Shown here: piece by piece, positions 78-17,716 of the stretch
Layout: every line of letters starts with the position of its first letter
Position numbering within the stretch: position 1 is the first letter of the stretch
DNA from: Thermoguttaceae bacterium
Lineage (GTDB): Bacteria > Planctomycetota > Planctomycetia > Pirellulales > Thermoguttaceae
Direction of reading: 5' to 3'
Length of the DNA: 32,877 bases
NCBI GenBank assembly: GCA_017466305.1
Contig: JAFTUJ010000435.1
Span: 1 to 32,877 of the forward strand
Program-made: the position numbers and the translations under genes
Notes under the pieces: model-generated
The model's database searches: none
Told to the model about the DNA's origin: nothing
Seen by the model: the letters and a program-made list of their open reading frames with translations, nothing else

Positions 78-857
78 ATGACGTTCCCCGGTTTTCCCTT
101 TGATTCCGCCTCTCGTTCTCCGGAGTTTTCCGGAGAGCCCCCCGCCGACGCGACGCGTCCCTTAACGCGCAACGTCGTTTCGCCGGAACGGGCGCGCGCT
201 TGGCTCCGCGACGCCGACCTTCTTCTCGTCCAAACGGGCGGTCCGATTCCTTGGCTGGGACGCGGGCTGCACGGACACGTCGCGACGGCCGCGCGTTGGG
301 GCGCCGACTGGTTCGTTCTCGAAACGCGCCCGGGCGGCGGACGCGCCGTTCCTCTCGAAGCGTTTTTGCGCCGCGCCCCCGGCCGAGTCGACGTGTTCCG
401 CCCAAACCCGGACGGACGTTGGCCCGAATACCGCCCGGAAAAATGCGTCCTTTTCCTCCGCCGCGCCCTTGCGGCTCGATACGGTTGGCGCGGCGTTTGT
501 TCCGCGGCGCTCGCGCGACTTCCGTTCGTTCGCCTCCTTTGGCGCGACGATTATTTCAACGACGGCGACATGTCGACGCAACGCAAAGTCAAAACGCTTT
601 TCGACGTCGCAACCAATTCCTTTCCAACGACTTCCGAATGCGAACAACTCGACGAAATTTGGCGTTTCGACCGCGAGCTTCAACGCCGCGCGTCGCTCCA
701 CTGCGCCGAGGCGCGCGCCTTGGCCGACCGATACGCCGGCGTCGATTCCGTTCCGTTCCTAAACGACCGTTTCGTCGAACCCGCCGACTTAGCCCGCAGC
801 CCGTTTTACCGTTACCAATGGACGTTCGGCCCGCTCGCCCGACGCGCTCCGCTTTAA
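78..857 (+). CDS. YiiX/YebB-like permuted NlpC/P60 cysteine peptidase, phage-module candidate lysin
   Basis: The 259-aa product looks like a circularly permuted NlpC/P60 (YiiX-type) papain-like hydrolase. An Asp-Leu-Leu-Leu strand near residue 47 leads to a G-x-H-G-H element (His65/His67) and then a strand with Glu82. The likely nucleophile Cys209 comes late, in an S-L-H-C-A-E context, and is followed by the P-x-D-L-x-x-S-x-F-Y-R-Y tail common in this family. Known members cleave peptide or acyl bonds, so a peptidoglycan-lytic role is possible in this phage setting, but that is inference. No signal peptide is evident. The start has no Shine-Dalgarno and an A-rich leader. The frame stays open to the window edge, so a start further upstream cannot be excluded, although the DNA before 78 looks intergenic. 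It is the first of a run of + strand phage genes. Confidence 0.6.
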   Translation: MTFPGFPFDSASRSPEFSGEPPADATRPLTRNVVSPERARAWLRDADLLLVQTGGPIPWLGRGLHGHVATAARWGADWFVLETRPGGGRAVPLEAFLRRAPGRVDVFRPNPDGRWPEYRPEKCVLFLRRALAARYGWRGVCSAALARLPFVRLLWRDDYFNDGDMSTQRKVKTLFDVATNSFPTTSECEQLDEIWRFDRELQRRASLHCAEARALADRYAGVDSVPFLNDRFVEPADLARSPFYRYQWTFGPLARRAPL

Positions 858-960: not shown

Positions 961-2274
961 ATGACTCGAACCGTTCGAAATCGTCTTTTTTTAGCGTTGG
1001 CGCTCGGCGTCGCGACGACGTTCCCTCGTTCCCTTCAAACGCGTTCGCTTTCCCTCGGCGACGCCGTTTCGTTCTCCGAATTCAACCGGCTTAACCGAAG
1101 CGCTGTCAACAGATTAACGCCGTTCGACGACGCCGCGCCGCTTTGGCTTTCCCGGCTCCGCGAAACAGGCGCCGAAACCGACGCTTTAAGCGCGCCGTCC
1201 AACGCTCAAACATTCGACCGCTTCTTGTTAGGCGACGCGGCGCCCCTACTTAACCCGCCGTCGTTCAACGACTTATTTTCCCCCGGTTGTCCAAGCGGAA
1301 CCTGCCCGTTCGCCGCCGCGCCCGCGCCGCCGACTCCGACGCCGCCGACTCAAACGCCGCCGACTCAAACGCCTCCGGCTCCGACGGCGCCCGAAGGCGT
1401 CGTCCGCTCCGTCGTTCGCGTTTACAACGCTTACGAAGAAACGATTTCCAACGCCGACGCGGCGCTAGGCCCGACGCGACGTCGCGTCGTTGAAAAAGGG
1501 AGCGGCGCGATCGTCGCCGACGCGGTCGGAACGCGTTACGTTCTCACCGCCGCGCATATCTTTCGCGACGGTCGCGGCCAAATCACCGCGCAGTCGCTCG
1601 ACGGACGTATCTTCTCCGCTTCTCTTGCTTTAGCGTCGGAGGAATGCGACGTCGCGCTCCTTCGCGTCGACGCGCCGACGGACGTTCCGGCCCTAACGAT
1701 TTCCGCCTCTTGGCCGCGACAAGGCGAGACCGTTTGGCGCGCCGGTTTCGGACCGAACGAAACGCTGCAAGAGCTTGCCGGCGTCGTCAAAGGTTACGTC
1801 AAAACCGACCGTTACGCGACTTACGAAACGTTAAAAATCGACGGTCCGGCGCGCCAGGGCGACTCCGGCGGCCCCGTTTACAACGCGTCGGGCGAAATCG
1901 TCGGCGTCGTTTGGGGAACGGACGGTTCCGACGCTTACGCAACCTATTGCGGCCGCGTTCTTAAGACGCTTTGCGACTATTCGCCGACCTTTAACCCCGA
2001 CGCCGTTCAAGCCGACGCGCCGTCGCAACCGTCCCGACCGACGAAACCGTCCCAACCGTCGTCCGCCGACGACGCAATCGCCGCGCTCCCCCCCGCCGAC
2101 GCGCTAACCGACGATTCGCCAACGGCTTGCGAGCCCGAGTCCGCGCCGATCGACAGCGTTGCGCCGACGTTCGCGCCGCCGTCGAAATCGGGCGATTTTT
2201 GGGACGCCGCTTTAGCTTTCACCGTCGCTTTCGCTTTCGGATATTGCGGCTTTTTCGCCGCCAAAAGCCGCTGA
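961..2274 (+). CDS. Secreted trypsin-like serine protease with C-terminal membrane helix
   Basis: 437 aa. An N-terminal hydrophobic segment (about residues 8-20) suggests export. A Pro/Thr-rich linker (about 119-143) precedes a chymotrypsin-fold domain (about 147-330). The triad is visible: His199 in T-A-A-H, Asp230 in E-E-C-D-V-A-L-L, and Ser302 in G-D-S-G-G-P. After a second Pro/Ser/Asp-rich linker, residues about 413-432 form a hydrophobic segment ending in A-K-S-R, like a C-terminal membrane anchor. The start is supported by an AAGGA ribosome site about 8 nt upstream. It lies between the YiiX-like peptidase and a small membrane protein, in the place where a lysis cassette might sit. Peptidase activity is well supported. 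The role in the phage (lysis, virion processing, cargo) is unknown. Confidence 0.8.
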   Translation: MTRTVRNRLFLALALGVATTFPRSLQTRSLSLGDAVSFSEFNRLNRSAVNRLTPFDDAAPLWLSRLRETGAETDALSAPSNAQTFDRFLLGDAAPLLNPPSFNDLFSPGCPSGTCPFAAAPAPPTPTPPTQTPPTQTPPAPTAPEGVVRSVVRVYNAYEETISNADAALGPTRRRVVEKGSGAIVADAVGTRYVLTAAHIFRDGRGQITAQSLDGRIFSASLALASEECDVALLRVDAPTDVPALTISASWPRQGETVWRAGFGPNETLQELAGVVKGYVKTDRYATYETLKIDGPARQGDSGGPVYNASGEIVGVVWGTDGSDAYATYCGRVLKTLCDYSPTFNPDAVQADAPSQPSRPTKPSQPSSADDAIAALPPADALTDDSPTACEPESAPIDSVAPTFAPPSKSGDFWDAALAFTVAFAFGYCGFFAAKSR

Positions 2275-2360: not shown

Positions 2361-2621
2361 ATGGAATGGAACGCTTCGACCGGGTTGGCGCTCGGTATCG
2401 TTTCGACGCTAACCCCTTGGTTTTTCTCGGTTCACTCGAAACTCGCCGCCATCGCGGAGCAAACCGCGCAAGGCGCCCAAAAAATCGACGCGATCGCCGC
2501 CGCGACCGGGCGCGCGTTTGAAAAAGTTTACGACGCCGAGAAGCAAATCGCGGCGCAAGACCTTCGTTTAAACCAAGTTAGCGAACGTCTCGACAAACTC
2601 GCCGAATCTTTCGCCGAATAG
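2361..2621 (+). CDS. Small membrane protein with coiled coil, holin-like candidate
   Basis: 86 aa. Residues about 5-24 form one hydrophobic helix with W-F-F near its end. The rest is a charged Ala/Gln/Glu/Lys-rich amphipathic helix with coiled-coil character running to the C-terminus. The ribosome site GAAAGGA lies about 8 nt before the ATG. Its size, single N-terminal membrane segment and position beside a putative lysin resemble phage holin or lysis-accessory proteins, but no family signature is recognisable. A small structural or partition-linked protein is equally possible. Confidence 0.5.
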   Translation: MEWNASTGLALGIVSTLTPWFFSVHSKLAAIAEQTAQGAQKIDAIAAATGRAFEKVYDAEKQIAAQDLRLNQVSERLDKLAESFAE

Positions 2622-2692: not shown

Positions 2693-3247
2693 ATGCGCAA
2701 CCGCGTCAAAGAATTACGTTTTGTCAAAGCGTCCGACTTAACCCCTTGCGCCGACAATTGGCGTCTTCATCCCAAGCGCCAACGCGACTTAATGCAAAGC
2801 GTCTTGCAGTCGATCGGTTACGCCGACGCGCTGATCGCTCGCGAAACGGAGGACGGTTCCCTCGCCCTGATCGACGGGCACCTCCGCGCCGACCTTTCCC
2901 CCGACGTCGAAGTTCCGGTTCTTATCGTCGACCTTAACGAACGAGAAGCCAAGGAGTTGCTCCTCGTTCACGACCCGATCGGAGCGCTCGCCGAACGCGA
3001 CGACGAAGCGCTCGCCCGCCTTCTCGACGACTTTGAAGCGACCAACGAAACGCTCGAACGCTTTATCGTCGAAGAGTTTAACGTCGCTCTTCCCAACGAC
3101 GACGCCGGGTCGCTCGAAGAGCCTAAACCGGTCGCGATTCCCAACTTATTTCAAATCATCGTCGAATGCGAAGACGAAGCCGAACAGCGCGAATGTTTCG
3201 AAGAGCTGACGCGAGCCGGTCGCAAGTGTCGCGTCGTCAACCTTTAA
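2693..3247 (+). CDS. ParB/Srx-fold protein of phage type
   Basis: 184 aa. The N-terminal half has ParB-N/sulfiredoxin features: an N-W-R-x-H-P-x-R-Q segment (residues 22-30) that fits the helix before the nucleotide-binding region, and an I-D-G-H-L-R motif (about 60-65) matching the conserved D-G-H-x-R box. The middle is acidic and helical. The C-terminus (about 151-184) forms a compact F-Q-I-I-V-E-C ... E-Q-R-E-C-F ... G-R-K-C-R-V unit, as I recall from other phage-encoded ParB-like proteins. A strong AAGGAG lies 6-8 nt before the ATG. It has no partner ParA and no helix-turn-helix DNA-binding domain, so chromosome-type partition is unlikely. The next gene encodes the ABC-GNAT fusion, which suggests a joint function, perhaps DNA modification, where ParB-fold proteins may act as CTPase/ATPase or nuclease-like factors. 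Function is inference. Confidence 0.75.
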   Translation: MRNRVKELRFVKASDLTPCADNWRLHPKRQRDLMQSVLQSIGYADALIARETEDGSLALIDGHLRADLSPDVEVPVLIVDLNEREAKELLLVHDPIGALAERDDEALARLLDDFEATNETLERFIVEEFNVALPNDDAGSLEEPKPVAIPNLFQIIVECEDEAEQRECFEELTRAGRKCRVVNL

Positions 3248-3304
3248 GTTTCGCCTTATTCCCTTTCTTATCCCCTTGTTTTTTTCCTTGGAAAGGAAAC
3301 GACG

Positions 3305-4417
3305 TTGGAAAACACCCCGCAAACGCAAACGCTCCGCCTCGCGTCGCCGGTTTACGATTCGTTCCGAGTGCGCGCGATCGCCGGCATGTTCGACGCGCCG
3401 ATCGAAGCGAAAACGGAGAAAATCGTTACGTTCGAAACGCCGCCGAGTCTCGACGAAAATTGGCGAATCGGTCTAATCGTCGGCCCCTCCGGAAGCGGCA
3501 AAAGTTCCGTCGCGGAAACGATTTACGCGTCCGAAATTTTCCGCGGCGCCGATTGGGCGACCGACAAGGCGACGATCGATAATTTCGGCGAACGCCCGAC
3601 GCAAGAAATCGTTCGGATGCTGACGACGGTCGGTTTCGGCTCGCCGCCGAGTTGGGCGCAACCGTTCGCGACGTTGAGCAACGGCGAAAAATTTCGCTGC
3701 GAACTCGCCCGCGCGCTCCTCGACTCGCCGTCGGAACTCGTTGTATTCGACGAATTTACGAGCGTTGTCGACCGAACGGTCGCGAAAACCGCCTCGGCCG
3801 CGATCGCCGACGGAATCCGCAAAAACTTCGTTCAAAAGCGTTTCGTCGCGCTCTCTTGTCATTACGACGTCGTCGACTGGCTCGAGCCCGATTGGGTTCT
3901 CGACATGGCGACCGGAAAACTGACAAGGAGGCGTCTTCGGCGCCCCCGCGTTAAGCTCGAAATCTTGCGCGGCGATAAAAAAGACTGGCCCCGTTTTGCG
4001 AAGCATCACTATTTGAGCGGTTCGCTGCATCCCTCGGCGCAGTGTTACTTAGCGTTTTGGGACGAAACGCCGGTCGCCTTTTGCGCGACGCTTCCGATTT
4101 TCGGCTCAACCGGTCGACGCCGCGTAACGCGTCTCGTCGTTCTCCCGGATTATCAAGGTTTAGGAATCGGAACGGCGTTCATCGAAACGCTCGGCGACCT
4201 TTATCGCGACCGTTCGTTCCGTTTTAGCATTACGTCGAGTCATCCGTCGATTATAAACCACTGCAAACGTTCAAGTTATTGGCGCGCGGTTTCGTTGTCG
4301 AAATTTGGGCGACACAGCAAAGTCGACGGGGCGCGTCGAACCGGTTCCTCCTTGGGCCGCGCCGTCGTTTCGTTCGAATACCTCGGTCGCGACCGGTCGA
4401 TTACCGCCGCGCGTTAA
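3305..4417 (+). CDS. ABC-type ATPase fused to Mom-like GNAT acyltransferase
   Basis: 370 aa, two domains. Residues about 50-205 are an ABC ATPase: Walker A G-P-S-G-S-G-K-S (60-67), signature L-S-N-G-E-K (124-129), Walker B L-V-V-F-D-E (145-150) and an H-loop-like S-C-H (184-186). No membrane segments are present, so it is a soluble ABC protein and not a transporter. Residues about 217-360 are a GNAT fold: an H-H-Y-L-S-G motif (234-239) like that of the phage Mu Mom group, and the acyl-CoA-binding-type loop V-L-P-D-Y-Q-G-L-G-I-G (279-289). Mu Mom modifies adenine in DNA, so a DNA base modification role coupled to ATP hydrolysis is plausible; this is inference. The start is TTG, preceded by AAAGGA at good spacing; the next in-frame ATG (about residue 28) would still leave both domains whole. 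The neighbours are the ParB-like gene and the terminase genes. Confidence 0.8.
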   Translation: MENTPQTQTLRLASPVYDSFRVRAIAGMFDAPIEAKTEKIVTFETPPSLDENWRIGLIVGPSGSGKSSVAETIYASEIFRGADWATDKATIDNFGERPTQEIVRMLTTVGFGSPPSWAQPFATLSNGEKFRCELARALLDSPSELVVFDEFTSVVDRTVAKTASAAIADGIRKNFVQKRFVALSCHYDVVDWLEPDWVLDMATGKLTRRRLRRPRVKLEILRGDKKDWPRFAKHHYLSGSLHPSAQCYLAFWDETPVAFCATLPIFGSTGRRRVTRLVVLPDYQGLGIGTAFIETLGDLYRDRSFRFSITSSHPSIINHCKRSSYWRAVSLSKFGRHSKVDGARRTGSSLGRAVVSFEYLGRDRSITAAR

Positions 4418-4460: not shown

Positions 4461-4907
4461 ATGACGACGCCTAAACGCAAAACGAAAAAAAAAACGCTCT
4501 CCGCAACGGATAAAAACGGAATCCTCGCGGTCGTCGCGCTCGGCGCTTCGCTCGACGTCGCGGCGCGCTACTTCAAGCGAGAACCGCAAGAAATCGTCGA
4601 CGCGTTAACCGACGACGGCGATTTTCAACGCGATTTCCAACAAGCGCAAGAGCAAGCGGAAGTCTTTTTCTTAAAACAAGTTAAAACAGCCGCGCTCGAC
4701 GCGAAAAACTGGCGCGCCGCGACTTGGGCCCTCGAGCGTCTTCGACCGGATCGGTACGGTCGCGTCAAAGCCGACGCGATTTCCGTCGAAGAAATCAAAA
4801 CGCTTTTCGCCCGTCTCCGCGCGACGATCGCCGCCGAATTTACCGACGAAAGCGAGCGCCAAAAGTTAGAAGCCAAATTGGACGCGCTTCTACAAACGTT
4901 AAGCTAA
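4461..4907 (+). CDS. Phage terminase small subunit-like protein
   Basis: 148 aa. A Lys-rich N-terminus is followed by a helix-turn-helix-like stretch (about residues 15-50; G-A-S-L-D-V-A-A-R-Y-F ... I-V-D-A-L). Then comes the N-W-R-A-A-T-W-A-L-E-R-L-R-P-D-R-Y-G-R element (about 82-100) that is typical of small terminase subunits and related packaging DNA-binding proteins. The C-terminus is helical and likely oligomerises. In known phages this subunit recognises the packaging site and loads the large subunit. It sits 59 bp upstream of the large subunit. There is no clear Shine-Dalgarno; the ATG follows an A-rich leader with the CAACGCTTAAC motif. Confidence 0.75.
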   Translation: MTTPKRKTKKKTLSATDKNGILAVVALGASLDVAARYFKREPQEIVDALTDDGDFQRDFQQAQEQAEVFFLKQVKTAALDAKNWRAATWALERLRPDRYGRVKADAISVEEIKTLFARLRATIAAEFTDESERQKLEAKLDALLQTLS

Positions 4908-4966
4908 CCCCTAACCTTTTTTTTCCAACGTTTCCTCCTTTTTCCTCCGTTCGAAAGTTTCCGCCG

Positions 4967-6544
4967 ATGCAAACGCGCCGCCTCGCCCGACTCGCTCGCC
5001 AAACGTTGCGCCGAACGTCCGAAAACGACGTCTTGACGCAACGTTTCCGCAACCTCGTCGAATGGTCGCAATTCTTTTTACCGCACTATTTTACGCTTCC
5101 CGTTTCGAAAGCGCACCGTTGGTTTGCGGAAACGGTCGAAGCGAACGTTGGGCGTCGGGGAGTCAAATTGAACTTCTTAGCGCCGCGCGGCGCCGCCAAA
5201 TCGACGCTCGGCGCCTTGGCCTATCCGCTGCGCGAAGCGCTCGAAGGTCGCGAGTCGTATATTTGGCTCGTTTCCGACGTTCGCTCGCAAGCGCAAAACC
5301 ACTTAAACAACATTATTAAAGAACTTGAAGACAACCCGCGCATTCGCCGCTATTACGTCGAACCGCAAAAATTACGCTGGTCGACGCGCTCGAATCGCCT
5401 CGCGTTCAGCTCCGGCGTCGCGCTCGAGTGTTACGGAACCGGTCAAAAGTTGCGCGGTCGCCGCGAGCGCGAACGCCGTCCGACGCTAATTATCGGCGAC
5501 GACTTGCAAAACGACGACCACATCGTTTCGCAAACGCGCCGCGAACGTTCTCGACGCTGGTTTTTCGGCGCGCTCCTAAAAGCCGGCGACGTCAAGACTA
5601 ACGTCGTTCATTTGGCGACCGCGCTTCATCCGGAGGCGATCGGTTGGGAGCTCCTTTCGAACCCGGCTTGGATCGGCAAAAGCTTCCCGGCGATTCTGCG
5701 TTTCCCGGACGCGGTCGAACTTTGGAACGAATGGAAAGCGATTTATCTTTCGTCCGACGCCGACGCAAGCGCCCGCGCCGACGAGTTTTACCGCGCCCGT
5801 TTCGACGAGATGAACGCCGGCGCCGAGGTTCTTTGGCCCGAAAACGAGTCGCTCCTCGACCTGATGAAAATGCGCGTCGAAAGCGGCGAAAAAGTTTTTT
5901 TGCGCGAAAAGCAGAATTCGCCGGTCGCGACCGAGTACAACGAATTTCCGGACGAATATTTCGACGACGTTTGGGTCGACGCGTTTCCGCAAGACGTTGT
6001 CGCGACGGCGCTTGCGCTTGACCCGAGTAAAGGACGACGCGCTTCCGTCGGCGACTATTCCGCCTTCGTCGTCGCCGCGCTCGCCTCGGACGGAACGATT
6101 TTTGTCGACGCGACGCTCGGTCGCTTTCCAACGTCGGAACTCGTCGACGAAGCGTTCGAAATTTGGCGCCGTTATCGCCCCGACGTTTTCGCGGTCGAAA
6201 CGAACCAATTTCAGGAGCTTCTTCGCGACGAGTTGGAGCGTTCCTTCCGCGAACGCGGCGTTCCCGACGCGGCGTTTTTCCCCATCGAAAACCGCCTCAA
6301 CAAAAACGTTAGGATTCGTCGCTTAGGCGCGCCGCTGTCGAAGCGCAAACTGCGTTTCCTTCGCGACAACCCGTCGAACGAGCTGCTGATCGAGCAGCTT
6401 CAAGCGTTCCCTTGCGGAGCGCACGACGACGGCCCGGACGCGCTCGAAATGGCGCTGCGCGTTTTGACGGCGTTGACGGAAACGCCGGTCGAAGAAACCT
6501 TTAGCCGCGGCGATTTTGGCGCGAATCGCCCCGACTTTTATTAA
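4967..6544 (+). CDS. terL: Phage terminase large subunit
   Basis: 525 aa from the ATG at 4967. A longer open frame reaches back to 4724 but would overlap the small subunit, so this start is preferred. The N-terminal packaging ATPase has the deviant Walker A A-P-R-G-A-A-K-S-T typical of TerL (about residues 73-81) and a Walker B-like L-I-I-G-D-D. The C-terminal RNase H-like nuclease shows L-D-P-S-K-G with a following G-D-Y-S, then F-A-V-E-T-N and the closing D-D-G-P-D-A-L acidic motif. The protein translocates DNA into the procapsid and cuts concatemers. Only a weak GAAAG lies upstream. It is directly followed by the portal gene, the usual order in tailed phages. Confidence 0.93.
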   Translation: MQTRRLARLARQTLRRTSENDVLTQRFRNLVEWSQFFLPHYFTLPVSKAHRWFAETVEANVGRRGVKLNFLAPRGAAKSTLGALAYPLREALEGRESYIWLVSDVRSQAQNHLNNIIKELEDNPRIRRYYVEPQKLRWSTRSNRLAFSSGVALECYGTGQKLRGRRERERRPTLIIGDDLQNDDHIVSQTRRERSRRWFFGALLKAGDVKTNVVHLATALHPEAIGWELLSNPAWIGKSFPAILRFPDAVELWNEWKAIYLSSDADASARADEFYRARFDEMNAGAEVLWPENESLLDLMKMRVESGEKVFLREKQNSPVATEYNEFPDEYFDDVWVDAFPQDVVATALALDPSKGRRASVGDYSAFVVAALASDGTIFVDATLGRFPTSELVDEAFEIWRRYRPDVFAVETNQFQELLRDELERSFRERGVPDAAFFPIENRLNKNVRIRRLGAPLSKRKLRFLRDNPSNELLIEQLQAFPCGAHDDGPDALEMALRVLTALTETPVEETFSRGDFGANRPDFY

Positions 6545-6567: not shown

Positions 6568-7905
6568 ATGCCTCGTTCCTTCCCCTTCAACGGCGTTTTA
6601 TCCGCCGACGCCGTCGTTTCGACGTTGGAATCGCGTTTCGCGTACGACGACCCTAACCCGTTTACTTTCGGCGCGTTATCGTATTCGCTGAACGAGTCGA
6701 CCGACACGGAGATTTTCAACGCCGCCGCGCGCCGGATTTCTCGCGAACTTTGTTTAAACAACCCGGTCGCTATCAACGCTTTAGAGAACCGCGTTAATTA
6801 CGTCGTCGGCTTCGGGCACAAATACCAAGCGACGGCGCGCGACGCCCGAGACGCGGAACTCGCTCAAAAAACGCAAGATATCGTCGTCGATTTCATCGTC
6901 GCGAACGACTGGTTCAAGCGTCAACAGGAGATTTTGCGCCGCTACGACCGCGACGGCGAGGTTTTTCTCCGCTTTTTCCGCGACGACGCCGGCAAGACGG
7001 TCGTTCGTTTCGTCGAACCGGAGCAAGTCAAGACGCCGCAAGGACATAACGCTCGTTCGGCGCGTTGCGGCGTCGTCTCAGACAAACGCGACGCCGAGAA
7101 AATTCTCGGTTATTGGATCGACGACGTTTTTGTCGACGCCTCGAAAATTCAACACCGCAAAGCGAACGTCGACGTCACCGCAAGTCGCGGCGTTCCCTTG
7201 CTTTACCCGGTCCGCGACAACCTGCGTCGCGCCGAAAAACTCCTCCGCAACATGAGCGTCGTCGCCGAAATCCAGTCGTCGATCGCGCTCATCCGCAAGC
7301 ACGCCAACGGCTCGCAGGAAACGATTCGCCGTTTCGTTCGCGATAAAAGCCAAAGCGCCAACGACTTACCGCCGCGCGAACGCTTTCGACCGGGCACGAT
7401 CGTCGACGCGACCGCCGGCGTCGATTACGAATTTCCGATCGCCGGAATCGACGCGACCCGTTACGTCCAAATTTTGCAAGCGGAGTTGCGAGCGATCGCC
7501 GCGCGGCTGACGATTCCGGAATTTATGTTGAGTTCGGACGCTTCGAACGCCAATTACTCCTCGACGAGCGTCGCGGAGGGCCCCGCCGTTCGCAATTTCG
7601 AACGAATGCAACACGAACTCATTAAAGAAGATATGAAGATCGTTTGGCGCGTCGTCGAAGACGCCGTTCTTCGAGGCGACCTTCCGGACGACGTCGGGCG
7701 GCGCGTTTCGATTCAAGCGATCCCGCCGTCGCTCGCGGTGCGCGACCGCCTCAGCGAAGCGCAAGCCGACGAAATTTTGATGAACGCCGGCGTCATTTCC
7801 CCGCAAACGGCGGCGATGCGTTACGGGCTCGACCCCAACCGAGAACGCGCGTTGCAACGTCAATTACGTCAAGAACTTGCGCAAAGCGAAAAGCGCGACG
7901 ACTAA
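6568..7905 (+). CDS. Phage portal protein
   Basis: 445 aa. Length, position right after TerL, and sequence pattern fit a portal protein: an N-terminal region with N-P-V-A-I-N-A-L-E-N-R, a basic/acidic R-R-Y-D-R-D-G-E-V-F-L-R-F-F segment, an internal V-E-P-E-Q-V-K-T-P stretch, and a C-terminal helical clip/crown region with L-T-I-P-E-F-M-L-S-S-D-A-S-N-A-N-Y-S-S, characteristic of lambda/SPP1-like portals. The portal ring forms the DNA entry vertex and docks terminase. A good AGGAG site lies 7 nt before the ATG, and the gap to TerL is 23 bp. Confidence 0.88.
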   Translation: MPRSFPFNGVLSADAVVSTLESRFAYDDPNPFTFGALSYSLNESTDTEIFNAAARRISRELCLNNPVAINALENRVNYVVGFGHKYQATARDARDAELAQKTQDIVVDFIVANDWFKRQQEILRRYDRDGEVFLRFFRDDAGKTVVRFVEPEQVKTPQGHNARSARCGVVSDKRDAEKILGYWIDDVFVDASKIQHRKANVDVTASRGVPLLYPVRDNLRRAEKLLRNMSVVAEIQSSIALIRKHANGSQETIRRFVRDKSQSANDLPPRERFRPGTIVDATAGVDYEFPIAGIDATRYVQILQAELRAIAARLTIPEFMLSSDASNANYSSTSVAEGPAVRNFERMQHELIKEDMKIVWRVVEDAVLRGDLPDDVGRRVSIQAIPPSLAVRDRLSEAQADEILMNAGVISPQTAAMRYGLDPNRERALQRQLRQELAQSEKRDD

Positions 7906-7955: not shown

Positions 7956-8861
7956 ATGAACAACGAAAACGTGTTGGAATTTTGCGACTTATCGTCGCCG
8001 CGACGCAAAATCGATAAAGAAAACGGCGTCGTTTCCGGCGTCAAAATTTTAGGCGTTAAAAGCCGCAACAACAGAATTTACCCGCTAGAAACGCTTCGCG
8101 ACGCGGCGCCGCTTTACGAAAACGCCAAAGTCAACGTCAATCACCCGGACGGTTCGCCGACCGAATCGCGCAAGTACCAAGATCGCGTCGGGTCGATTAA
8201 GAACGTAACGCTCCAAGAAAACGGACTTTACGGCGACTTCCATTTCAATCCGAAACATCCGCTCGCCGAGCAAATGCTTTGGGACGCGGAGAAAGCGCCG
8301 GAAAATTTCGGTTTTTCGCACAACGTCGAAGCGGTCGTTCGGCTCGAAAACGGCGCGCAGATCGTCGACAAAATCGTTCGCGTTCGCAGCGTCGACCTCG
8401 TCGCGGACCCGGCGACGACGTCCGGCCTTTTCGAATCGGAGCGCGCAACCCCGACGATTGCGCCGGTTAACGCCGCCGACGTCGACGCTTCCGCGCCGAA
8501 CGACGCGACGGGCGCCGCTCGTCTTCAAACGCTCGAAAGCGAACGCGACGCCGCGACGCAACGCTTCGAAATCGCGCGATTCCTTTTGGAAAAACTCGCG
8601 ACCGAAGAAGCGCCCGCCGTTCGCTTGGCCCTCGGCGCGCCGTCGTTCCTTGAAATCGCGTTGGAGTCTCGCGACGTCGCTTCCGCGCAACGTCTTATCA
8701 AAGGTCAACTTGCGCTCGTCCAAGAAGCGATAAAGTTCGCCGCCGAACATCGCGACGCGACGGCGCGTGAATCAAAGTTCGAGCCGATCGTTTCCAAATC
8801 GCGCGCCGAACTCAACGACGCCGCGTCGCTCGAAAATTTCGCGGCGGCGATCAAGCGTTAA
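7956..8861 (+). CDS. Capsid maturation protease with scaffold-like C-terminus
   Basis: 301 aa. The N-terminal about 155 residues resemble prohead proteases of the assemblin/U35-like group: a V-N-V-N-H-P-D-G motif carrying the likely catalytic His (about residue 63), a second block F-G-F-S-H-N-V-E with the likely Ser (about 113), and R-S-V-D-L-V-A-D-P-A-T-T closing the fold. The C-terminal half (about 180-300) is Ala/Glu-rich and helical, which is typical of a fused scaffolding domain removed during maturation. It lies between portal and major capsid genes, as expected. The start follows GGAAAG. A five-codon reading frame (7942-7959) overlaps the start out of frame, probably by chance. Confidence 0.82.
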   Translation: MNNENVLEFCDLSSPRRKIDKENGVVSGVKILGVKSRNNRIYPLETLRDAAPLYENAKVNVNHPDGSPTESRKYQDRVGSIKNVTLQENGLYGDFHFNPKHPLAEQMLWDAEKAPENFGFSHNVEAVVRLENGAQIVDKIVRVRSVDLVADPATTSGLFESERATPTIAPVNAADVDASAPNDATGAARLQTLESERDAATQRFEIARFLLEKLATEEAPAVRLALGAPSFLEIALESRDVASAQRLIKGQLALVQEAIKFAAEHRDATARESKFEPIVSKSRAELNDAASLENFAAAIKR

Positions 8862-8950
8862 CTTCGCCTATTTCGTCGGTTACCGTCGCTCGCGTCGGCG
8901 GTCGCTTTCCCAGTTCCCCCATTTTACGTTCAAATTTCACTTTCCTTACT

Positions 8951-8961
8951 CAACGCTTAAC
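8951..8961 (+). repeat. CAACGCTTAAC leader motif, copy 3
   Basis: This is the third copy of the 11-bp word, located 15 nt before the major capsid ATG and followed by a GGAAAGG ribosome site. Confidence 0.3.
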
Positions 8962-8976
8962 CCGGAAAGGCCTCCA

Positions 8977-10140
8977 ATGGCAAACATTAAATACCGCGAA
9001 TTGAAACGACGTTACGAACTCGACGGCGCGCAAAAGACCGTCGAGCATCTCTCGGAAGCCCTTGCGAAACAAGAACTTCGCGCCGACGATTTTAGTCTCC
9101 GCGACTTAGCGGAAGCGCTCGTTCCGAACGGTTCCGAATGGGTGCGCGAGTTGAACCCGAACGTCGGTTCGCTCGCCGAATCGTTCCAAGGCGTCGACGT
9201 TTCCGCGTTCGCGACGATCGCCGGGCAACTGATTTACAGTCGCATTCTCGAATCTTATCAATCGGAAGTCTTTTGCCTGTCGAAACTTATCACGACAATT
9301 CCGACGCGTCTCAACGGCGAAAAAATCCCCGGTTTTTCGTCGATCGCCGACGCCGCGGTCGAAATCGAACCGGGCGCCGCTTACCCGAACGTCGGTTTCG
9401 GCGAAGATTACATCGAGACGCCGGAAACGACGAAACGCGGCCTCATTGTTCCGGTTACGCGCGAAGCCGTCTTCTTCGACCGGACGCACGTCGTCCTGAA
9501 TCGGGCGAGCGAAGTCGGCGAAACGCTCGCGCTCAACAAGGAAAAACGCGTCGCCGACATGATTCTCGGCGTTTCCAATCTTTACCAATGGAACGGAACC
9601 GCGTACTCGACCTATTACGCCGCGTCGACCGCTTCCGCGCCTTGGGTTAACATGCTCTCCGGCAACGCTTTAGAATCGCTCGAAAACGTCGACGCCGCCG
9701 AAAATCTGCTGGCGAGCGCGCTCGACCCGAACACCGGCGAACCGATTCTTTCGGAAGCGAACGTCGCGCTCGTTTCTCCCGCTAAACGTCGAATCGCCAA
9801 CGCGTTGCTGCACGGCGCGAATTTGAGCTGCGCCGACGGAACGCTCCGTTCGATTCCGAATCCGTTCGAAAAGATTTCGGTCGTTTCGAGCCGAATCGCG
9901 CGCCGCCAACTCGCGAAAGCCAACGCGTCCGCCGACGCCGGAACGCTCGACGATTACTGGTTTTACGGCGACTTCAAAAAGGCGTTCGCCTATATGGAGA
10001 ACTGGCCGATCACCGTTTCCGTTTCGTCGGCGGGGAGCGAAGCCGACTTCAGCCAAGACGTCGTCGCGCGCTTCAAAGCGAGCGAACGCGGAACCCCGGC
10101 GGTCTTGAATCCGCGTTGCGTCGTCAAATGCGTCGGTTAA
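8977..10140 (+). CDS. Phage major capsid protein, HK97-like fold
   Basis: 387 aa from the ATG at 8977, which follows GGAAAGG; the open frame extends further upstream but without a ribosome site. Position after the protease and the overall pattern support an HK97-fold coat protein: a charged helical N-terminus (about 1-60, possible delta domain), then the core with I-P-G-F-S-S, a G-A-A-Y-P-N-V-G-F-G-E-D-Y-I-E-T-P-E-T-T-K-R-G segment (E-loop/P-domain region), and a C-terminal D-F-K-K-A-F-A-Y-M-E-N-W-P-I-T-V and R-F-K-A-S-E-R-G sequence typical of the A domain and its end. It would form the virion shell. A strong hairpin follows directly downstream. Confidence 0.88.
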   Translation: MANIKYRELKRRYELDGAQKTVEHLSEALAKQELRADDFSLRDLAEALVPNGSEWVRELNPNVGSLAESFQGVDVSAFATIAGQLIYSRILESYQSEVFCLSKLITTIPTRLNGEKIPGFSSIADAAVEIEPGAAYPNVGFGEDYIETPETTKRGLIVPVTREAVFFDRTHVVLNRASEVGETLALNKEKRVADMILGVSNLYQWNGTAYSTYYAASTASAPWVNMLSGNALESLENVDAAENLLASALDPNTGEPILSEANVALVSPAKRRIANALLHGANLSCADGTLRSIPNPFEKISVVSSRIARRQLAKANASADAGTLDDYWFYGDFKKAFAYMENWPITVSVSSAGSEADFSQDVVARFKASERGTPAVLNPRCVVKCVG

Positions 10141-10158: not shown

Positions 10159-10197
10159 CGCTAAGAACGGCGATTTAACGACTTGCCGTTCTTAGCG
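10159..10197 (+). terminator. Perfect 13-bp hairpin after the capsid gene
   Basis: CGCTAAGAACGGC (10159-10171) and its exact reverse complement (10185-10197) flank a 13-nt loop, 18 bp after the capsid stop. No clean T-run follows. It may be a partial terminator, a processing site or an mRNA 3' stabiliser that sets capsid expression above the downstream genes. Confidence 0.6.
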
Positions 10198-10254
10198 CCA
10201 ACGTCGCCGCCGCGAAGTTTTTTCTTCTTTTCGGCGGCGCTCGGAAAGGCCGAT

Positions 10255-10479
10255 ATGGAAAATTCGCTCGACGTCGGCGTCGTTTTGCAAATTAAACGTC
10301 AAACTTTAGCGACGCTCGCCGAACTGGCGCGCGAACCGAAACCGACGTATAAAATCGACGGCGCCGTCGTCTCTTGGACGGAATATCAAGAGAGTTTGCG
10401 ACAAACGGTCGACTGGTGCGACAAACAACTTAACGCGTTATCGTCGTTTGAGTTGCGCTCAATCGCCGTCGTCGACTGA
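10255..10479 (+). CDS. Small phage protein of unknown function (74 aa)
   Basis: 74 aa from the ATG at 10255, preceded by GGAAAGG. A helical start (V-V-L-Q-I-K-R-Q-T-L-A-T-L-A-E-L) is followed by a K-P-T-Y-K-I-D-G-A-V-V-S-W-T-E-Y segment and a second helix. I recognise the Y-x-I-D-G-x-x-V-S-W-T-E-Y pattern as recurring in short proteins downstream of capsid genes, but cannot name a family. A head-completion or connector role is possible from position alone. Confidence 0.6.
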   Translation: MENSLDVGVVLQIKRQTLATLAELAREPKPTYKIDGAVVSWTEYQESLRQTVDWCDKQLNALSSFELRSIAVVD

Positions 10480-10589: not shown

Positions 10590-11246
10590 ATGTCGTTTAT
10601 CGACAAGTTTTACAAAATAGGCGACTTTAACGAACGCGTCGTCGCGCTGCAAAACCGCGACGGCGCGCTCGTCTCGTTCGAAATCGACCGCGCGGCGGCC
10701 TTTTCGCGCCAATTCTCCAACGCTAACGGCGACGGCGATTCACCGCCGCGTCTTACCGCCGTTTGGCGTTTGCCGCTCGACGAGCGAACGCTTTCGATTC
10801 GACGCGGCGACAAGATTTGCGACGCCGATTCGCAAACTTGGACGGTCGCGAAAACGTCGGTTTCGCGAACAACGCAACTCGTTTCCTGTCAATGTTTTTG
10901 CGACCAACTTTTCCCCGACGCGACCGACGGCGTCGACCTGCTTCGCCCGCTTCGTTCCGGCGGTTTCGAGACGCTCGCGACCGACGCGCCGGCGGTCGTT
11001 CGGAGTCGTAAAACGTCGAGTCAAAATTCGGACGTCTTCCCGGCGTCGACGCTCGTCGACGAAATCGTTTTTTGGATTCGACTCGCAACGCCCGCCGCGC
11101 CGCGCGACGTCGTCGTTTTGCGCGACGGAACCCGTTACGAAACGGAAAGTTACCGACGTCCGGACGCTCTTTCCGATTGGGGCGTTTTGGTCGCGCGAAA
11201 GCGGCAAGGCGTCGACGCGACTTGGACGCGACCGGCGCAAAATTAA
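10590..11246 (+). CDS. Phage-module protein of unknown function (218 aa)
   Basis: 218 aa from the ATG at 10590, preceded by GGAGAGG; a TTG-started extension to 10503 lacks such a site. The sequence is mostly predicted beta-strand with short loops (R-L-T-A-V-W-R-L-P-L-D, T-L-S-I-R-R-G-D-K-I-C-D, W-T-V-A-K-T-S-V) and has no signal peptide or membrane segment. The D-K-I-x-D-x-D-x-Q-x-W-T-V pattern resembles small beta-barrel head-closure or stopper-type proteins, but the similarity is weak. Its place downstream of the capsid gene suggests a head-tail joining or virion role. Confidence 0.6.
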   Translation: MSFIDKFYKIGDFNERVVALQNRDGALVSFEIDRAAAFSRQFSNANGDGDSPPRLTAVWRLPLDERTLSIRRGDKICDADSQTWTVAKTSVSRTTQLVSCQCFCDQLFPDATDGVDLLRPLRSGGFETLATDAPAVVRSRKTSSQNSDVFPASTLVDEIVFWIRLATPAAPRDVVVLRDGTRYETESYRRPDALSDWGVLVARKRQGVDATWTRPAQN

Positions 11247-11315: not shown

Positions 11316-12242
11316 ATGGCGATTCAAATTCAAGAGCTTCCGGGCTCGCCGCAAGAAAAATACTCGCTCGACTCCTTTTCCGCAACTCGAACGTTTATCG
11401 TCCCTTGGGAACAGCGCGACGCGTTCGCCCGTTACTTTCTCGGCGACCGGCTTTACGCCTGCGAATCGTTGACGCCGTCCGACGAAGAAGACGAATCGCT
11501 CGTTCCGCCGTCGTCCGAAGCGCCGATTTCCGGGCCGACGACGCGACTCGCTTATCCCGGCAAACCCGGGGTTTACGTCAGTCAAATCGCGTTCGAGCCG
11601 TTCGAACCGAGTTCGCTCGACGTCTCAAAAATCGCTCGCCCCGCGTCGACGCTCGGCGAATACGGCTCGTTCGCCAAAGCGATCGTATCTTACCGCGCTG
11701 AAACGACTTCCGTTGACCGCGACAATTCGCCGCGCGTTGATTCCGGAACCAGCCTCTCTTATAAAATGGTCGCTTGCGGCGAGTCGATTCCGATTTCGAC
11801 GCGCGGTTGGCGTTGGCGTTTCGACGCGACGGCGCCGGTTCCCGACGATCTGCAGCTCGTCAAACGCGTTCCAACGATCGAACATCAGCTCGTTTGGTCG
11901 AACGTTGTAAACCCGCCTTGGGAAAAGATTAGCGCGACGCAAGGAACGGTCAACGCCAACCCGTTTCTCGGTTACGCCGCCGGAACGCTCCTCTTCGAAG
12001 GCGCGGAAGCGAACAAAATTTTCAACGGCGAAATCGACGCCGGCGCCGTCGCTTACACTTGGCAAATTCGGTTTCTCTTCCGCGAAAAACGAATCGAAGC
12101 GGGCGGAACTTACGGCTGGAACGACTTTTACCGCGAATCGACCGGAACTTGGGAACGCCTCGTCGACGCCGCCGGGGCGCCGCTTTATCGCTCCGCCGAC
12201 CACGCCGCGCTTTTCGTTCAATCGCAAACCGTTTCCGAATAA
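11316..12242 (+). CDS. Phage-module protein of unknown function (308 aa), probable structural
   Basis: 308 aa. It begins with I-Q-E-L-P-G-S-P-Q-E-K-Y-S-L-D, then alternating polar/hydrophobic segments including Y-P-G-K-P-G-V-Y-V-S-Q-I, and a C-terminal A-Y-T-W-Q-I-R-F-L-F-R-E-K-R ... Y-G-W-N-D-F-Y-R block with many aromatic residues. It is beta-rich with no signal peptide, membrane segment or enzymatic motif visible. The Gly/Trp/Tyr-rich character would fit a virion surface or neck/tail component. Only a weak GAAAG precedes the ATG. The place of this gene, where tail genes usually begin, is the reason for the structural guess. Confidence 0.6.
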   Translation: MAIQIQELPGSPQEKYSLDSFSATRTFIVPWEQRDAFARYFLGDRLYACESLTPSDEEDESLVPPSSEAPISGPTTRLAYPGKPGVYVSQIAFEPFEPSSLDVSKIARPASTLGEYGSFAKAIVSYRAETTSVDRDNSPRVDSGTSLSYKMVACGESIPISTRGWRWRFDATAPVPDDLQLVKRVPTIEHQLVWSNVVNPPWEKISATQGTVNANPFLGYAAGTLLFEGAEANKIFNGEIDAGAVAYTWQIRFLFREKRIEAGGTYGWNDFYRESTGTWERLVDAAGAPLYRSADHAALFVQSQTVSE

Positions 12243-12298
12243 CAAGTTAACGCGTCTACCGACTTATTTTGTTTATTTTAAAGCGTCGGAGTTTTATT

Positions 12299-13024
12299 AT
12301 GTCGACTATCTCTTTAGAAAGCGCGACTTCGAGTTTTACGTCGCGCGGCGTTCCGTTTCGTCGCGTCGACGCGAACGGTTCTTGGGCGTTCGAGCAAGAC
12401 GGGGCGTCGTTCCGAATTTCGGAGCCGCGACGGTTGGAAATTCGCGTTTTTCAAGCGACGAAAGCGCCCGAGTTTCTCGCCTTTACTCGCGACGGCGCAA
12501 CGTTTTACGAACCGACGCTCAGTTTCGAAGCCGCGCCGGTTTACACGCCGTTTTCCGAAATCGCGCTCGGTTCCGCCCAACCGACGCCGCGCGAAAATTT
12601 ACGTCGCGTCGCCGATTCGAGCGAATCGGTTCGCCAACGCGTTTACGACCCGACGTTCCTCGAACGATTGAACGTCGATAAAACGTTGACGCAAAACGAT
12701 TTGCCGTTTGCGTTTTACGCGCCGTATCGCGTCGGCGACCGCTTGAACGCGTTTTGGAACCGAACGAGCGGGCGTTGGGAAGTTCTCGCGCCGCCGGAAT
12801 TTAACGTCGTTCGTTTTCAATTGACGTCGACGCTCGCAAGCGGTTCGGTCGCGACCGCCGCCGCGCTTTATTTCGATTCGGCGACGCAAACCTTTGTCGA
12901 CGGCGGACTTAAAATCGACGTCGCCGATTTTCTCGGGCGCTTCCAAGGAGCGGTCGGGGCGCGCGGTTACGCTCGACGGTTCGCCGACCGCGACGCTTGG
13001 GAAATTTTCGCGCTCGACGCTTAA
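12299..13024 (+). CDS. Last gene of the phage module, unknown function (241 aa)
   Basis: 241 aa from the ATG at 12299 (GGAG 7 nt upstream; a TTG 30 nt earlier is less likely). It is beta-rich, with V-P-F-R-R-V-D-A-N-G-S-W-A-F-E-Q-D-G near the start and a mid-protein Y-A-P-Y-R-V-G-D-R-L-N-A-F-W-N-R-T-S-G-R-W-E-V-L segment that looks like a small exposed beta domain. No membrane or catalytic motif is seen. It is the final + strand gene before the shared terminator, so it marks the right end of the phage module. Structural function is inference from context. Confidence 0.6.
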   Translation: MSTISLESATSSFTSRGVPFRRVDANGSWAFEQDGASFRISEPRRLEIRVFQATKAPEFLAFTRDGATFYEPTLSFEAAPVYTPFSEIALGSAQPTPRENLRRVADSSESVRQRVYDPTFLERLNVDKTLTQNDLPFAFYAPYRVGDRLNAFWNRTSGRWEVLAPPEFNVVRFQLTSTLASGSVATAAALYFDSATQTFVDGGLKIDVADFLGRFQGAVGARGYARRFADRDAWEIFALDA

Positions 13025-15925: not shown

Positions 15926-17716
15926 TTACTTCGCGGATTTTTGCGCGTCGCGAGCTTTTTTCGCTTCGGCGAAACGGGCGCCGGTTTTGCGTTCTTCGGC
16001 TAAGTCGGCGGCGAGCTTCGCGGCGACTTCCTCGACCGAAACCAACGTCGCGTCTTTTTCCCAGCGCCATTTGACTTCGACTTGACCGTCCTGCAAGCTC
16101 TTGCCGATCGTAACGCGCACCGGGAAACCGATCAGGTCGGCGTCCTTGAATTTGACGCCCGGGCGTTGGTCGCGGTCGTCGACGATCACGTCGACGCCTT
16201 GCGCTTCGAGTTCCGCGGCGATCTTTTCCGCGGCGGCCATGCTCGCTTCGTCCGTCGCCTTGATCGGGCAAACGCAAACTTCGTAAGGCGCGAGCGCGAC
16301 CGGCCAAACGATCCCGGCGTCGTCCCAACTCGTTTCGACCAAACCGGCGACGACGCGGCTGACGCCGATCCCGTAACAGCCCATAATAATCGTTTGTTGC
16401 GCCAACGAGTCGTCGAGGAATTTCGCGTTCAGCGCTTCCGTGTACTTCGTTCCAAGTTTAAAGACGTGGCCGACTTCGATCGCGTTTTGCATCGTCATCG
16501 GAGCGCCGCAGCGCGGGCAAGCGTCGCCCGGGAGCGCGTTGCGGACGTCGCCGTAAACGTCGACCGTAAAGTCGCGGTCGAGGTTGACGTTGACCAAGTG
16601 TTTCTCGGCTTTGTTCGCGCCGACGATCACGTTGACCAACTCTTTAAGCGTCGGGTCGGCGACGATCTTGATCTTTTCTTTCAAGCCGACCGGGCCCGCG
16701 AAACCGACCGGGGCGCCGGTAACGCGCTCGATCGTCGCGTCGTCGGCCAACTCGACCTTTTCGGCGCCGAGAACGCGGCGGAGTTTGTTTTCGTTGACGT
16801 CGCAATCGCCGCGAACCAAGACCGCGACCGCCGCGCCGTCAACGTTGTAAATCAACGTTTTAACGACGCGCTTCGGTTTCGCTTTCAGGAACGCGCAAAC
16901 TTGGTCGATCGTGTGCGCGCCGGGGGTGTCCAGCTCCGCGATTTCCTTCAAAACCGCGTCTTCCGGGCGGACGTAAACCGTTTCGCCGATTTCCGCCTTT
17001 TCGACGTTCGCCGCGTAACGGCAGGTCGGGCAGTAAACAACGTCGTCTTCGCCGTTCGGGGACGGAATCATGAACTCGTGCGACGCGTCGCCGCCGATCG
17101 GGCCGGACTCCGCTTCGACCGGCAAATACGGGAGGCCGCAACGTTCGAAAACGCGGCAGTAAGCGTCGTACATATCTTGGTACGTTTCGTTCAGCGACTC
17201 GATATTCGTGTGGAAGCTGTACGCGTCCTTCATCAAGAATTCGCTCGTGCGCAGGAGCCCGAACTTCGGTCGCTCTTCGTTGCGGAACTTCGTTTGGATT
17301 TGGTAAAGCGTCATCGGGAGCTGACGATAGCTCGAGACGTATTGCGAAACGATGCTCGTGATTTCCTCTTCGTGCGTCGGGCAGAAGACGACCGGCGTTT
17401 TCGCGCCGCCGCGAGTCAGCGTCGTTTTAATGAGGACGTTGCCGAACGCTTCGACGCGGTTCGTTTGTTCGTAAAGCGATTGCGGGCAGAGCGCCGACAT
17501 GAAGAGTTCCGACGCGCCGGTTCGGTTCATTTCTTCGCGAACGATGTTCGTCGCCTTGTGGAGCGCGCGCCACCCGAGCGGCAGGAACGCGTACGCGCCC
17601 GCCATCACTTGCGAAATCATCCCGGCGCGGAGCATCAAAATATGACTCGGAATCTCCGCTCCGTTCGGCGTTTCCTTCATCGTCGGAATCAGCGTTTTCG
17701 ACCATTTCATCGACAT
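15926..17716 (-). CDS. proS: Prolyl-tRNA synthetase, bacterial type with editing insertion
   Basis: 596 aa. It charges tRNA-Pro. The N-terminal class II core has G-A-Y-A-F-L-P-L-G-W-R-A-L (motif 1 region), C-P-T-H-E-E-E-I-T, and F-R-N-E-E-R-P-K-F-G-L-L-R-T-S-E-F-L-M-K-D-A-Y-S-F (motif 2). A YbaK-like editing domain is inserted at about 245-395 (K-P-K-R-V-V-K-T-L-I-Y ... V-L-V-R-G-D-C-D-V-N-E-N-K). Motif 3 G-C-Y-G-I-G-V-S-R and the anticodon-binding domain follow. Two CxxC pairs flank the insertion (Y-C-P-T-C-R and C-P-R-C-G), a feature of the bacterial form. AAGGAG lies 7 nt upstream of the start. It is the upstream partner of alaS. Confidence 0.97.
   Translation of the reverse strand: MSMKWSKTLIPTMKETPNGAEIPSHILMLRAGMISQVMAGAYAFLPLGWRALHKATNIVREEMNRTGASELFMSALCPQSLYEQTNRVEAFGNVLIKTTLTRGGAKTPVVFCPTHEEEITSIVSQYVSSYRQLPMTLYQIQTKFRNEERPKFGLLRTSEFLMKDAYSFHTNIESLNETYQDMYDAYCRVFERCGLPYLPVEAESGPIGGDASHEFMIPSPNGEDDVVYCPTCRYAANVEKAEIGETVYVRPEDAVLKEIAELDTPGAHTIDQVCAFLKAKPKRVVKTLIYNVDGAAVAVLVRGDCDVNENKLRRVLGAEKVELADDATIERVTGAPVGFAGPVGLKEKIKIVADPTLKELVNVIVGANKAEKHLVNVNLDRDFTVDVYGDVRNALPGDACPRCGAPMTMQNAIEVGHVFKLGTKYTEALNAKFLDDSLAQQTIIMGCYGIGVSRVVAGLVETSWDDAGIVWPVALAPYEVCVCPIKATDEASMAAAEKIAAELEAQGVDVIVDDRDQRPGVKFKDADLIGFPVRVTIGKSLQDGQVEVKWRWEKDATLVSVEEVAAKLAADLAEERKTGARFAEAKKARDAQKSAK

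What the first reader, a model, noticed from the sequence alone, without database searches (positions are those of the whole stretch)
2693..4417. ParB-like protein plus ABC ATPase-Mom-like GNAT fusion: candidate phage DNA modification system
Seen: a ParB/Srx-fold gene (D-G-H-L-R box) is followed after 57 bp by one protein with a full ABC ATPase (Walker A, signature, Walker B) and a GNAT domain with H-H-Y-L-S-G and Q-G-L-G-I-G. Known: Mu Mom, a GNAT-like enzyme, modifies adenine in phage DNA and protects it from restriction; from memory, unverified, comparative genomics has noted Mom-like GNATs with ABC ATPases and ParB-like proteins in phages. Inference: the pair here modifies DNA before packaging, since the terminase genes follow directly. 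The ATPase being in the same chain as the acyltransferase is unusual and its role is open.
Basis: partly seen in the sequence, partly recalled or inferred. Interest (0 to 1): 0.8.

Follow-up and report, generated by a model that had tools for sequence, protein, structure and literature searches.

The report
ABC-GNAT pair in domesticated phage cluster
A phage-type enzyme predicted to attach an acyl group to DNA sits, with its small partner protein, inside a set of virus-packaging genes that an entire order of planctomycete bacteria appears to have inherited as an ordinary single-copy chromosomal locus, so it may belong to an undescribed gene-transfer particle rather than to a passing virus.

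Summary
In detail: a 184-aa ParB/Srx-like protein (2693-3247) is followed by a 370-aa ABC ATPase-GNAT fusion (3305-4417), then TerS, TerL, portal and capsid genes. The pairing is real: 127 of 130 loci, median gap 12 nt, also in Lactococcus P335, Gordonia, Pasteurella and Pseudoalteromonas phages. The family is not new (PHROG 11143); a GNAT coupled with an ABC ATPase was already predicted to acylate DNA bases. It is not Mom: hhalign probability 0.8%, Mom motifs mostly absent; closest solved folds are ordinary GNATs such as RimI.

The phage-derived block ends at 13024 and alaS-proS follow directly. Its TerL occurs in 131 of 296 genomes of the order, almost always once. The ABC-GNAT and TerL trees recover every multi-member host genus as one group, flanking host genes are shared between genera, and the genes are under purifying selection. 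This is a vertically inherited, domesticated packaging cluster, possibly a gene transfer agent. In some Pirellulaceae-type genomes only a 52-69 aa remnant of the ParB C-terminus precedes the enzyme, so that tail, not the ParB fold, appears to be the essential partner. DNA acylation remains inferred, not shown.

The parts
2693..3247 (+). ParB/Srx-like partner protein, 184 aa (D-G-H-L-R box)
   Evidence: phrog_620 1.3e-11, phrog_498 9.1e-13; upstream of ABC-GNAT in 127 of 130 loci
3110..3244 (+). C-terminal mini-domain (about residues 140-184, ending ECEDEAEQRECFEELTRAGRKCRVVNL); exists alone in some Pirellulaceae-type genomes
   Evidence: 52-69 aa stand-alone ORFs next to ABC-GNAT in family f16, genera g44 and g58; phrog_28816 matches this part
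3305..4417 (+). ABC ATPase-GNAT fusion, 370 aa, TTG start
   Evidence: phrog_11143 1.9e-99; Pfam ABC_tran and Acetyltransf_1; model pLDDT 86.7
3317..3952 (+). ABC ATPase half (residues about 5-216): Walker A 60-67, signature LSNGE 124-128, Walker B DE 149-150, H-loop His186
   Evidence: invariant residues in 28 homologues; VIA-align Z up to 15.2 to ABC ATPases
3947..4405 (+). GNAT half (residues about 215-367): W228, F231, H235-Y236, R276, QGLGIG 284-289
   Evidence: model pLDDT 87.4; VIA-align Z 14.8 to 1y9k, 13.9 to RimI
4461..4907 (+). terminase small subunit (TerS)
   Evidence: phrog_4102 2.9e-6; conserved in 55 of 61 clusters
4961..6544 (+). terminase large subunit (TerL)
   Evidence: phrog_38 1.2e-77; found in 131 of 296 genomes of the order
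6568..7905 (+). portal protein, lambda family
   Evidence: PF05136 2.8e-27
7956..8861 (+). putative head protease/scaffold
   Evidence: phrog_29592 1.2e-16, weak phrog_207; 45 of 61 clusters
8956..10140 (+). major capsid protein
   Evidence: PF25209 5.9e-15
10183..10479 (+). conserved small cluster protein (about 75 aa core)
   Evidence: family present in 43 of 61 clusters
10591..11246 (+). ORF in the position of the 216-aa putative head-completion protein
   Evidence: position and size like the family found in 37 of 61 clusters; no database name
11316..12242 (+). conserved 308-aa cluster protein of unknown function
   Evidence: family in 21 of 61 clusters
12269..13024 (+). last ORF of the phage-derived block, unknown function
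   Evidence: no Pfam hit; alaS follows
2361..2621 (+). small protein with a hydrophobic N-terminal stretch upstream of ParB (holin-like position)
   Evidence: phrog_2619 0.0019
961..2274 (+). trypsin-like protease with C-terminal TM segment, upstream cluster gene
   Evidence: PF13365 2.3e-19; trypsin-type gene in this place in 44 of 61 clusters
78..857 (+). conserved upstream cluster protein (NlpC/P60-like appearance; family in 37 of 61 clusters)
   Evidence: shares motif EPADLARSPFYRY with the G107 and G095 proteins; relative hits phrog_1128 1.3e-14
13148..15775 (-). alaS, host housekeeping gene that ends the cluster
   Evidence: PF01411 5.3e-161; same flank in four more genomes of the genus
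15926..17716 (-). proS, host housekeeping gene
   Evidence: PF00587 1.7e-28 and related domains

Best explanation
The pair is an ATP-driven acyltransferase and its targeting partner, which acts on DNA about to be packaged, and here it belongs to a vertically inherited phage-derived packaging cluster of Pirellulales. Proposed mechanism: two ABC halves dimerise on DNA when ATP binds and hold it as a clamp; the GNAT half transfers an acyl group from acyl-CoA to a base amino group; the partner's C-terminal tail docks on the enzyme, and its ParB/Srx domain, when present, recruits it to DNA or to the terminase. Shown here: domain content, intact ATPase and acyl-CoA motifs, conserved pairing, position beside the terminase, purifying selection, vertical inheritance and fixed locus. 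Inferred: DNA as substrate, dimeric clamp, tail docking, and release of gene-transfer-agent-like particles.
For: Fusion, active-site residues and fold. ParB upstream in 127 of 130 loci, 110 within 200 bp, none on the opposite strand. Same arrangement before terminase in phages P335, Pmp13 and Ligma, and in SL25 before TerL. Prior prediction of base acylation. Domesticated cluster: TerL in 131 of 296 genomes, 103 of 205 high-quality ones, nearly always one full-length copy; ABC-GNAT in 138 of 296. Tree: all 21 family-f7 ABC-GNATs form one clade (SH-aLRT 99), and every genus with more than one member is a single group in both trees (8 changes for 9 genera, 9 for 10, the minimum). RpoB versus TerL distances rho 0.66 (0 of 2000 permutations), versus ABC-GNAT 0.45 (1 of 2000). 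Shared host flanks between genera, and alaS after the cluster in five genomes of the window's genus. dN/dS 0.19 for ParB and ABC-GNAT, 0.10 TerL, 0.09 portal. Block ends at housekeeping genes. No listed tyrosine recombinase near TerL in the single-contig genomes (list truncated). C-terminal mini-protein alone in f16. Glycosyltransferase in the slot upstream of TerL in genus g4.
Against: No modified base has been shown. The GNAT half is structurally closest to protein and small-molecule acetyltransferases. No tape-measure gene was found in the cluster (one family tested), so infectious or transferring particles are not established. Fewer than half of the order's sampled genomes have the cluster. 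Locus position is not universal: G166, G006, G017 and G005 lie far from rpoB. G024 has a second ABC-GNAT elsewhere, so horizontal movement also occurs.
Confidence: 0.5

Rival explanations
1. The ABC-GNAT acylates a protein, for example TerL, portal, capsid or a host protein, and the partner selects that protein. DNA is not the substrate.
For: Best fold matches of the GNAT half include N-terminal and lysine-type acetyltransferases: RimI Z 13.9, Naa50 13.5, Ard1 13.5. It has an ordinary acyl-CoA loop.
Against: GNAT fold matches do not fix the substrate, and these matches are nearly tied with small-molecule GNATs. Coupling to an ABC ATPase without membrane partner and to ParB-like proteins favours nucleic acid. 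Published family prediction is DNA.
Confidence: 0.25
2. Ordinary temperate prophage carrying a DNA-modification gene; its presence in many genomes is repeated infection.
For: Same module is found in many true phages. PHROG families match phage head genes.
Against: One copy per genome, genus-monophyletic trees, shared host flanks, no integrase or replication genes in a block of about 11-13 kb bounded by alaS.
Confidence: 0.08
3. The pair modifies RNA (tRNA or rRNA) by ATP-dependent acetylation, as the helicase-GNAT TmcA does, to keep translation going during particle production.
For: ATPase plus GNAT in one chain has a known RNA-modifying precedent (own knowledge of TmcA).
Against: Conserved position next to terminase and a ParB-like partner point to DNA and packaging. 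No TmcA family appeared among the hits shown in Pfam or NCBIfam.
Confidence: 0.1
4. The cluster is a decaying ancient prophage kept by chance.
For: Some members have broken or split genes: G079, G119 and G280 ABC-GNAT fragments. No tape measure recognised.
Against: dN/dS 0.09-0.19 in ParB, ABC-GNAT, TerS, TerL and portal among eight close relatives, and conservation across dozens of genera.
Confidence: 0.07

Closest known systems
ABC ATPase-coupled GNAT predicted DNA acylation system (Iyer et al. 2013; restated in PMC7824862) / PHROG 11143
   Same: Same domain pair, full-length PHROG match at 1.9e-99, phage terminase neighbourhood.
   Different: Here it lies in a vertically inherited chromosomal cluster, and the partner can shrink to a 52-69 aa C-terminal domain. 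I could not read the 2013 paper itself, so whether it noted ParB or planctomycetes is unknown to me.
Mom of phage Mu (phrog_1384, structure 8bv8)
   Same: GNAT superfamily; shares an H-Y motif before the first long strand.
   Different: No profile similarity (hhalign 0.8%), no ELNR or SFAD motifs, has the ordinary QGLGIG loop, coupled to an ABC ATPase.
Gene transfer agents (RcGTA, CcGTA)
   Same: Vertically inherited, single-copy phage head and packaging cluster without integrase or replication genes.
   Different: Different phylum; carries ParB and ABC-GNAT genes; no recognised tape measure; particles not shown.
Phage ParB/Srx-fold proteins (phrog_620, and phrog_498, annotated DNA methyltransferase, which shares the ParB-like part)
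   Same: N-terminal ParB/Srx-like domain next to DNA-modifying enzymes.
   Different: No methyltransferase; distinct C-terminal mini-domain that also occurs alone.

Membership tests
ABC ATPase-coupled GNAT (PHROG 11143 / Iyer 2013 system) | Full-length match to the phage family with both domains | tested here: met
   phrog_11143 1.9e-99 over residues 14-365; ABC and GNAT modelled
ABC ATPase-coupled GNAT (PHROG 11143 / Iyer 2013 system) | Intact ATPase and acyl-CoA motifs | tested here: met
   Invariant Walker A, signature, Walker B, H-loop and GNAT loop residues
ABC ATPase-coupled GNAT (PHROG 11143 / Iyer 2013 system) | Acylates a DNA base | not testable with these tools
   Published prediction only
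Mom family | Sequence or profile similarity to Mom | tested here: not met
   No Mom hit for the GNAT half in PHROGs; hhalign 0.8%
Mom family | Mom-specific conserved motifs ELNR, SFAD, YQASNF | tested here: not met
   Core residues invariant in nine Moms, absent from the ABC-GNAT alignment; only H-Y is shared
Mom family | Structural match to Mom 8bv8 | tested here: inconclusive
   8bv8 not among the 50 rows shown by Foldseek or VIA-align
ParB/Srx superfamily | ParB-like profile match | tested here: met
   phrog_620 1.3e-11
ParB/Srx superfamily | Conserved GxxR-type box throughout the partners | tested here: inconclusive
   Gly invariant, but the Arg is Thr in several members; the domain is absent in f16 g44 and g58
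Gene transfer agent | Vertical inheritance, single chromosomal copy | tested here: met
Gene transfer agent | Phage-derived head and packaging genes under purifying selection | tested here: met
Gene transfer agent | Tail for delivery | tested here: inconclusive
   No tape measure recognised; PF10145 gave only weak or distant hits
Gene transfer agent | Packages random host DNA and transfers it | not testable with these tools
   Needs particles
Ordinary temperate prophage | Integrase and replication genes with the structural genes | tested here: not met
   None among annotated ORFs of the window; no listed tyrosine recombinase near TerL in the single-contig genomes (list truncated)

The most novel reading that the evidence does not exclude
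Pirellulales carry an order-wide gene transfer agent that marks the DNA it packages with an acyl group through an ATP-driven ABC-GNAT enzyme, protecting transferred host DNA from restriction in the recipient; the enzyme is recruited by a roughly 45-aa docking domain that is the true partner, the ParB fold being optional.
Probability: 0.25. Interest if true: 0.88.

Novelty: new variant of a known kind. Interest (0 to 1): 0.62.

Why it matters
The modification family was predicted years ago and I found no experiment on it. An order-wide, single-copy version in cultured, sequenced planctomycetes (contig lengths point to Adhaeretor mobilis, Lacipirellula limnantheis, Botrimarina and Bythopirellula) makes it directly testable on chromosomal and particle DNA. 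If the cluster makes particles, it would be a gene transfer agent in a phylum where I found none described, and one that carries its own predicted DNA-modification genes. The C-terminal mini-protein narrows the search for how these enzymes are targeted.

Tried and rejected
Mom membership: rejected on profile and motif tests; 8bv8 did not appear among the fold matches shown, which alone excludes nothing. Ordinary prophage: rejected on distribution, trees, flanks and gene content. A ParB alignment could not be used for a collection scan because no stretch was conserved enough. A single-protein TerL scan of IMG/VR found only two near-identical contigs. A PADLOC hit of the ABC half to mad3 (2.3e-12) covers a short stretch around the ABC signature and Walker B and was taken as generic ABC similarity. 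A first count of shared flanking genes (up to 30) was inflated by overlapping reading frames and was redone (up to 10). Paper searches for planctomycete gene transfer agents found none, but only open-licence papers are held. The Iyer 2013 paper and the ABC ATPase classification were not readable.

Full report
Observation. The two ORFs are at the stated places. The first is a ParB-like protein by PHROGs; Pfam does not recognise it. The second matches PHROG 11143, a phage family of unknown function, over its whole length at 1.9e-99, with Pfam ABC_tran and Acetyltransf_1 hits. AlphaFold gives a confident two-domain model; VIA-align matches residues 5-216 to ABC ATPases and 215-367 to GNATs. In 28 divergent homologues the ATPase residues and the core of the GNAT acyl-CoA loop are invariant.

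Pairing. In 135 loci from IMG/VR and from bacterial genomes, 130 have enough upstream sequence, and 127 of these have a ParB-like gene upstream on the same strand; the median gap is 12 nt, 110 lie within 200 bp, and none is on the opposite strand. The same order, ParB then ABC-GNAT then terminase, holds in Lactococcus phage P335 (where ABC and GNAT are two genes), Pasteurella phage Pmp13, Gordonia phage Ligma and, unannotated, Pseudoalteromonas phage SL25. At least 53 phage records carry the family.

Prior art. PMC7824862 states that Iyer and colleagues had earlier identified a GNAT coupled with an ABC ATPase, predicted to make an uncharacterised acyl modification of a DNA base, and lists it separately from Mom. 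So the system itself is a known predicted kind.

Not Mom. The GNAT half has no Mom hit in PHROGs. hhalign against an alignment of nine Mom proteins gives a probability of 0.8% and aligns only the H-Y region. Mom-invariant ELNR and SFAD motifs are missing, and the QGLGIG loop that Mom lacks is present. The best fold matches are ordinary GNATs, Z 13-15. Fold does not tell the substrate.

The setting. The contig belongs to a 3.17-Mb MAG; its closest relatives are gut Thermoguttaceae MAGs. The phage-derived block runs to 13024; alaS and proS follow. Pfam and PHROGs found no integrase, replication or tape-measure gene in the window and there is no tRNA gene. The TerL beside the pair occurs in 131 of 296 genomes of the order and in 69 of 121 genera, nearly always as one full-length copy. 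Outside the order, among 198 genomes of the class, only divergent relatives appear. ABC-GNAT occurs in 138 of 296.

Vertical inheritance. I fetched 60 clusters: counting the window, ABC-GNAT is present in 56 of 61 and ParB in 55-56; two of the five without them (G009, G161) are cut by contig ends. In the ABC-GNAT tree all 21 members from host family f7 form one clade with support 99, and all nine host genera with several members are single groups; TerL gives the same for ten genera. RpoB distances correlate with TerL (0.66, 0 of 2000 permutations) and more weakly with ABC-GNAT (0.45, 1 of 2000) and ParB (0.42, 1 of 2000), so some exchange of the pair is likely. In several f7 genomes TerL lies 138-287 kb from rpoB on the same strand (G107, G158, G150, G086, G081), but not in all. 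With non-overlapping ORFs, flanking host genes are shared between genera, up to ten, and eight genomes from six genera share three or more with another genus; alaS follows the cluster in five genomes of the window's genus. dN/dS among eight close relatives is 0.19 for ParB and ABC-GNAT, 0.10 for TerL and 0.09 for portal. G+C of the block (57.3%) is close to the flank (58.3%), with somewhat lower third-position G+C. I conclude, with about 90% confidence, that this is a domesticated, vertically inherited cluster. Whether it is a gene transfer agent is open, about 45%.

The partner's tail. In genera g44 and g58 of family f16 the gene before ABC-GNAT encodes only 52-69 aa (two ORFs are longer, 78 and 117 aa, perhaps by start choice) that align to the last 45-57 positions of the ParB family, and most overlap or abut the ABC-GNAT start. 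Within the ParB family the ParB box is variable while the tail (Q165, C159, E162, G176) is among the most conserved parts. I infer that the tail docks on the enzyme and that the ParB fold is an optional targeting module. In several of these genomes a divergent TerL lies 6-16 kb away.

Slot comparison. Two genomes of genus g4 (G054, G106) have no ParB-ABC-GNAT upstream of TerL and carry a group-1 glycosyltransferase there. This would fit exchange of one DNA-modifying enzyme for another but is only two related genomes, and the glycosyltransferase substrate is unknown; G106 keeps an ABC-GNAT elsewhere.

Mechanism. Best reading: an ATP-gated ABC dimer holds DNA while GNAT transfers an acyl group, before or during packaging. 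Shown: parts, motifs, pairing, location, selection, inheritance. Inferred: DNA as substrate, the dimer clamp, tail docking, particles. Main rival: protein acylation.

Noticed in passing
L015, L016, L018, L019, L020, L025 (e.g. L018:5805-6902 and 7962-9062): IMG/VR contigs with two tandem ABC-GNAT genes about 1 kb apart behind one ParB, as if two specificities were used.
   Followed up: no
L209 6298-7410 and L210 6137-7228 (oriented with TerL on +): Group-1 glycosyltransferase directly upstream of TerL in genus g4, in the place where ParB-ABC-GNAT sits elsewhere.
   Followed up: partly
upstream of the cluster in G107, G091, G068, G158, G131, G086, G095, G075, G081: Endonuclease/exonuclease/phosphatase-family gene (PF03372) next to the cluster in nine genomes of family f7.
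   Followed up: partly
L002, L003: IMG/VR 'viral' contigs with ABC-GNATs about 93% identical to the window's are probably chromosomal pieces of the domesticated cluster, mis-called as viruses.
   Followed up: no
L315-L319 (G138, G289, G274, G256, G197): Genomes of the window's own genus without this TerL carry a more divergent ParB-ABC-GNAT pair, possibly in ordinary prophages.
   Followed up: no
window 18988-21560 (-): MBOAT O-acyltransferase next to a GDSL-like hydrolase (weak hit), resembling a polysaccharide O-acetylation pair.
   Followed up: no
G307 and G425 (family f23, same class): A divergent relative of this TerL occurs in two or three copies per genome in another family of the class.
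   Followed up: no
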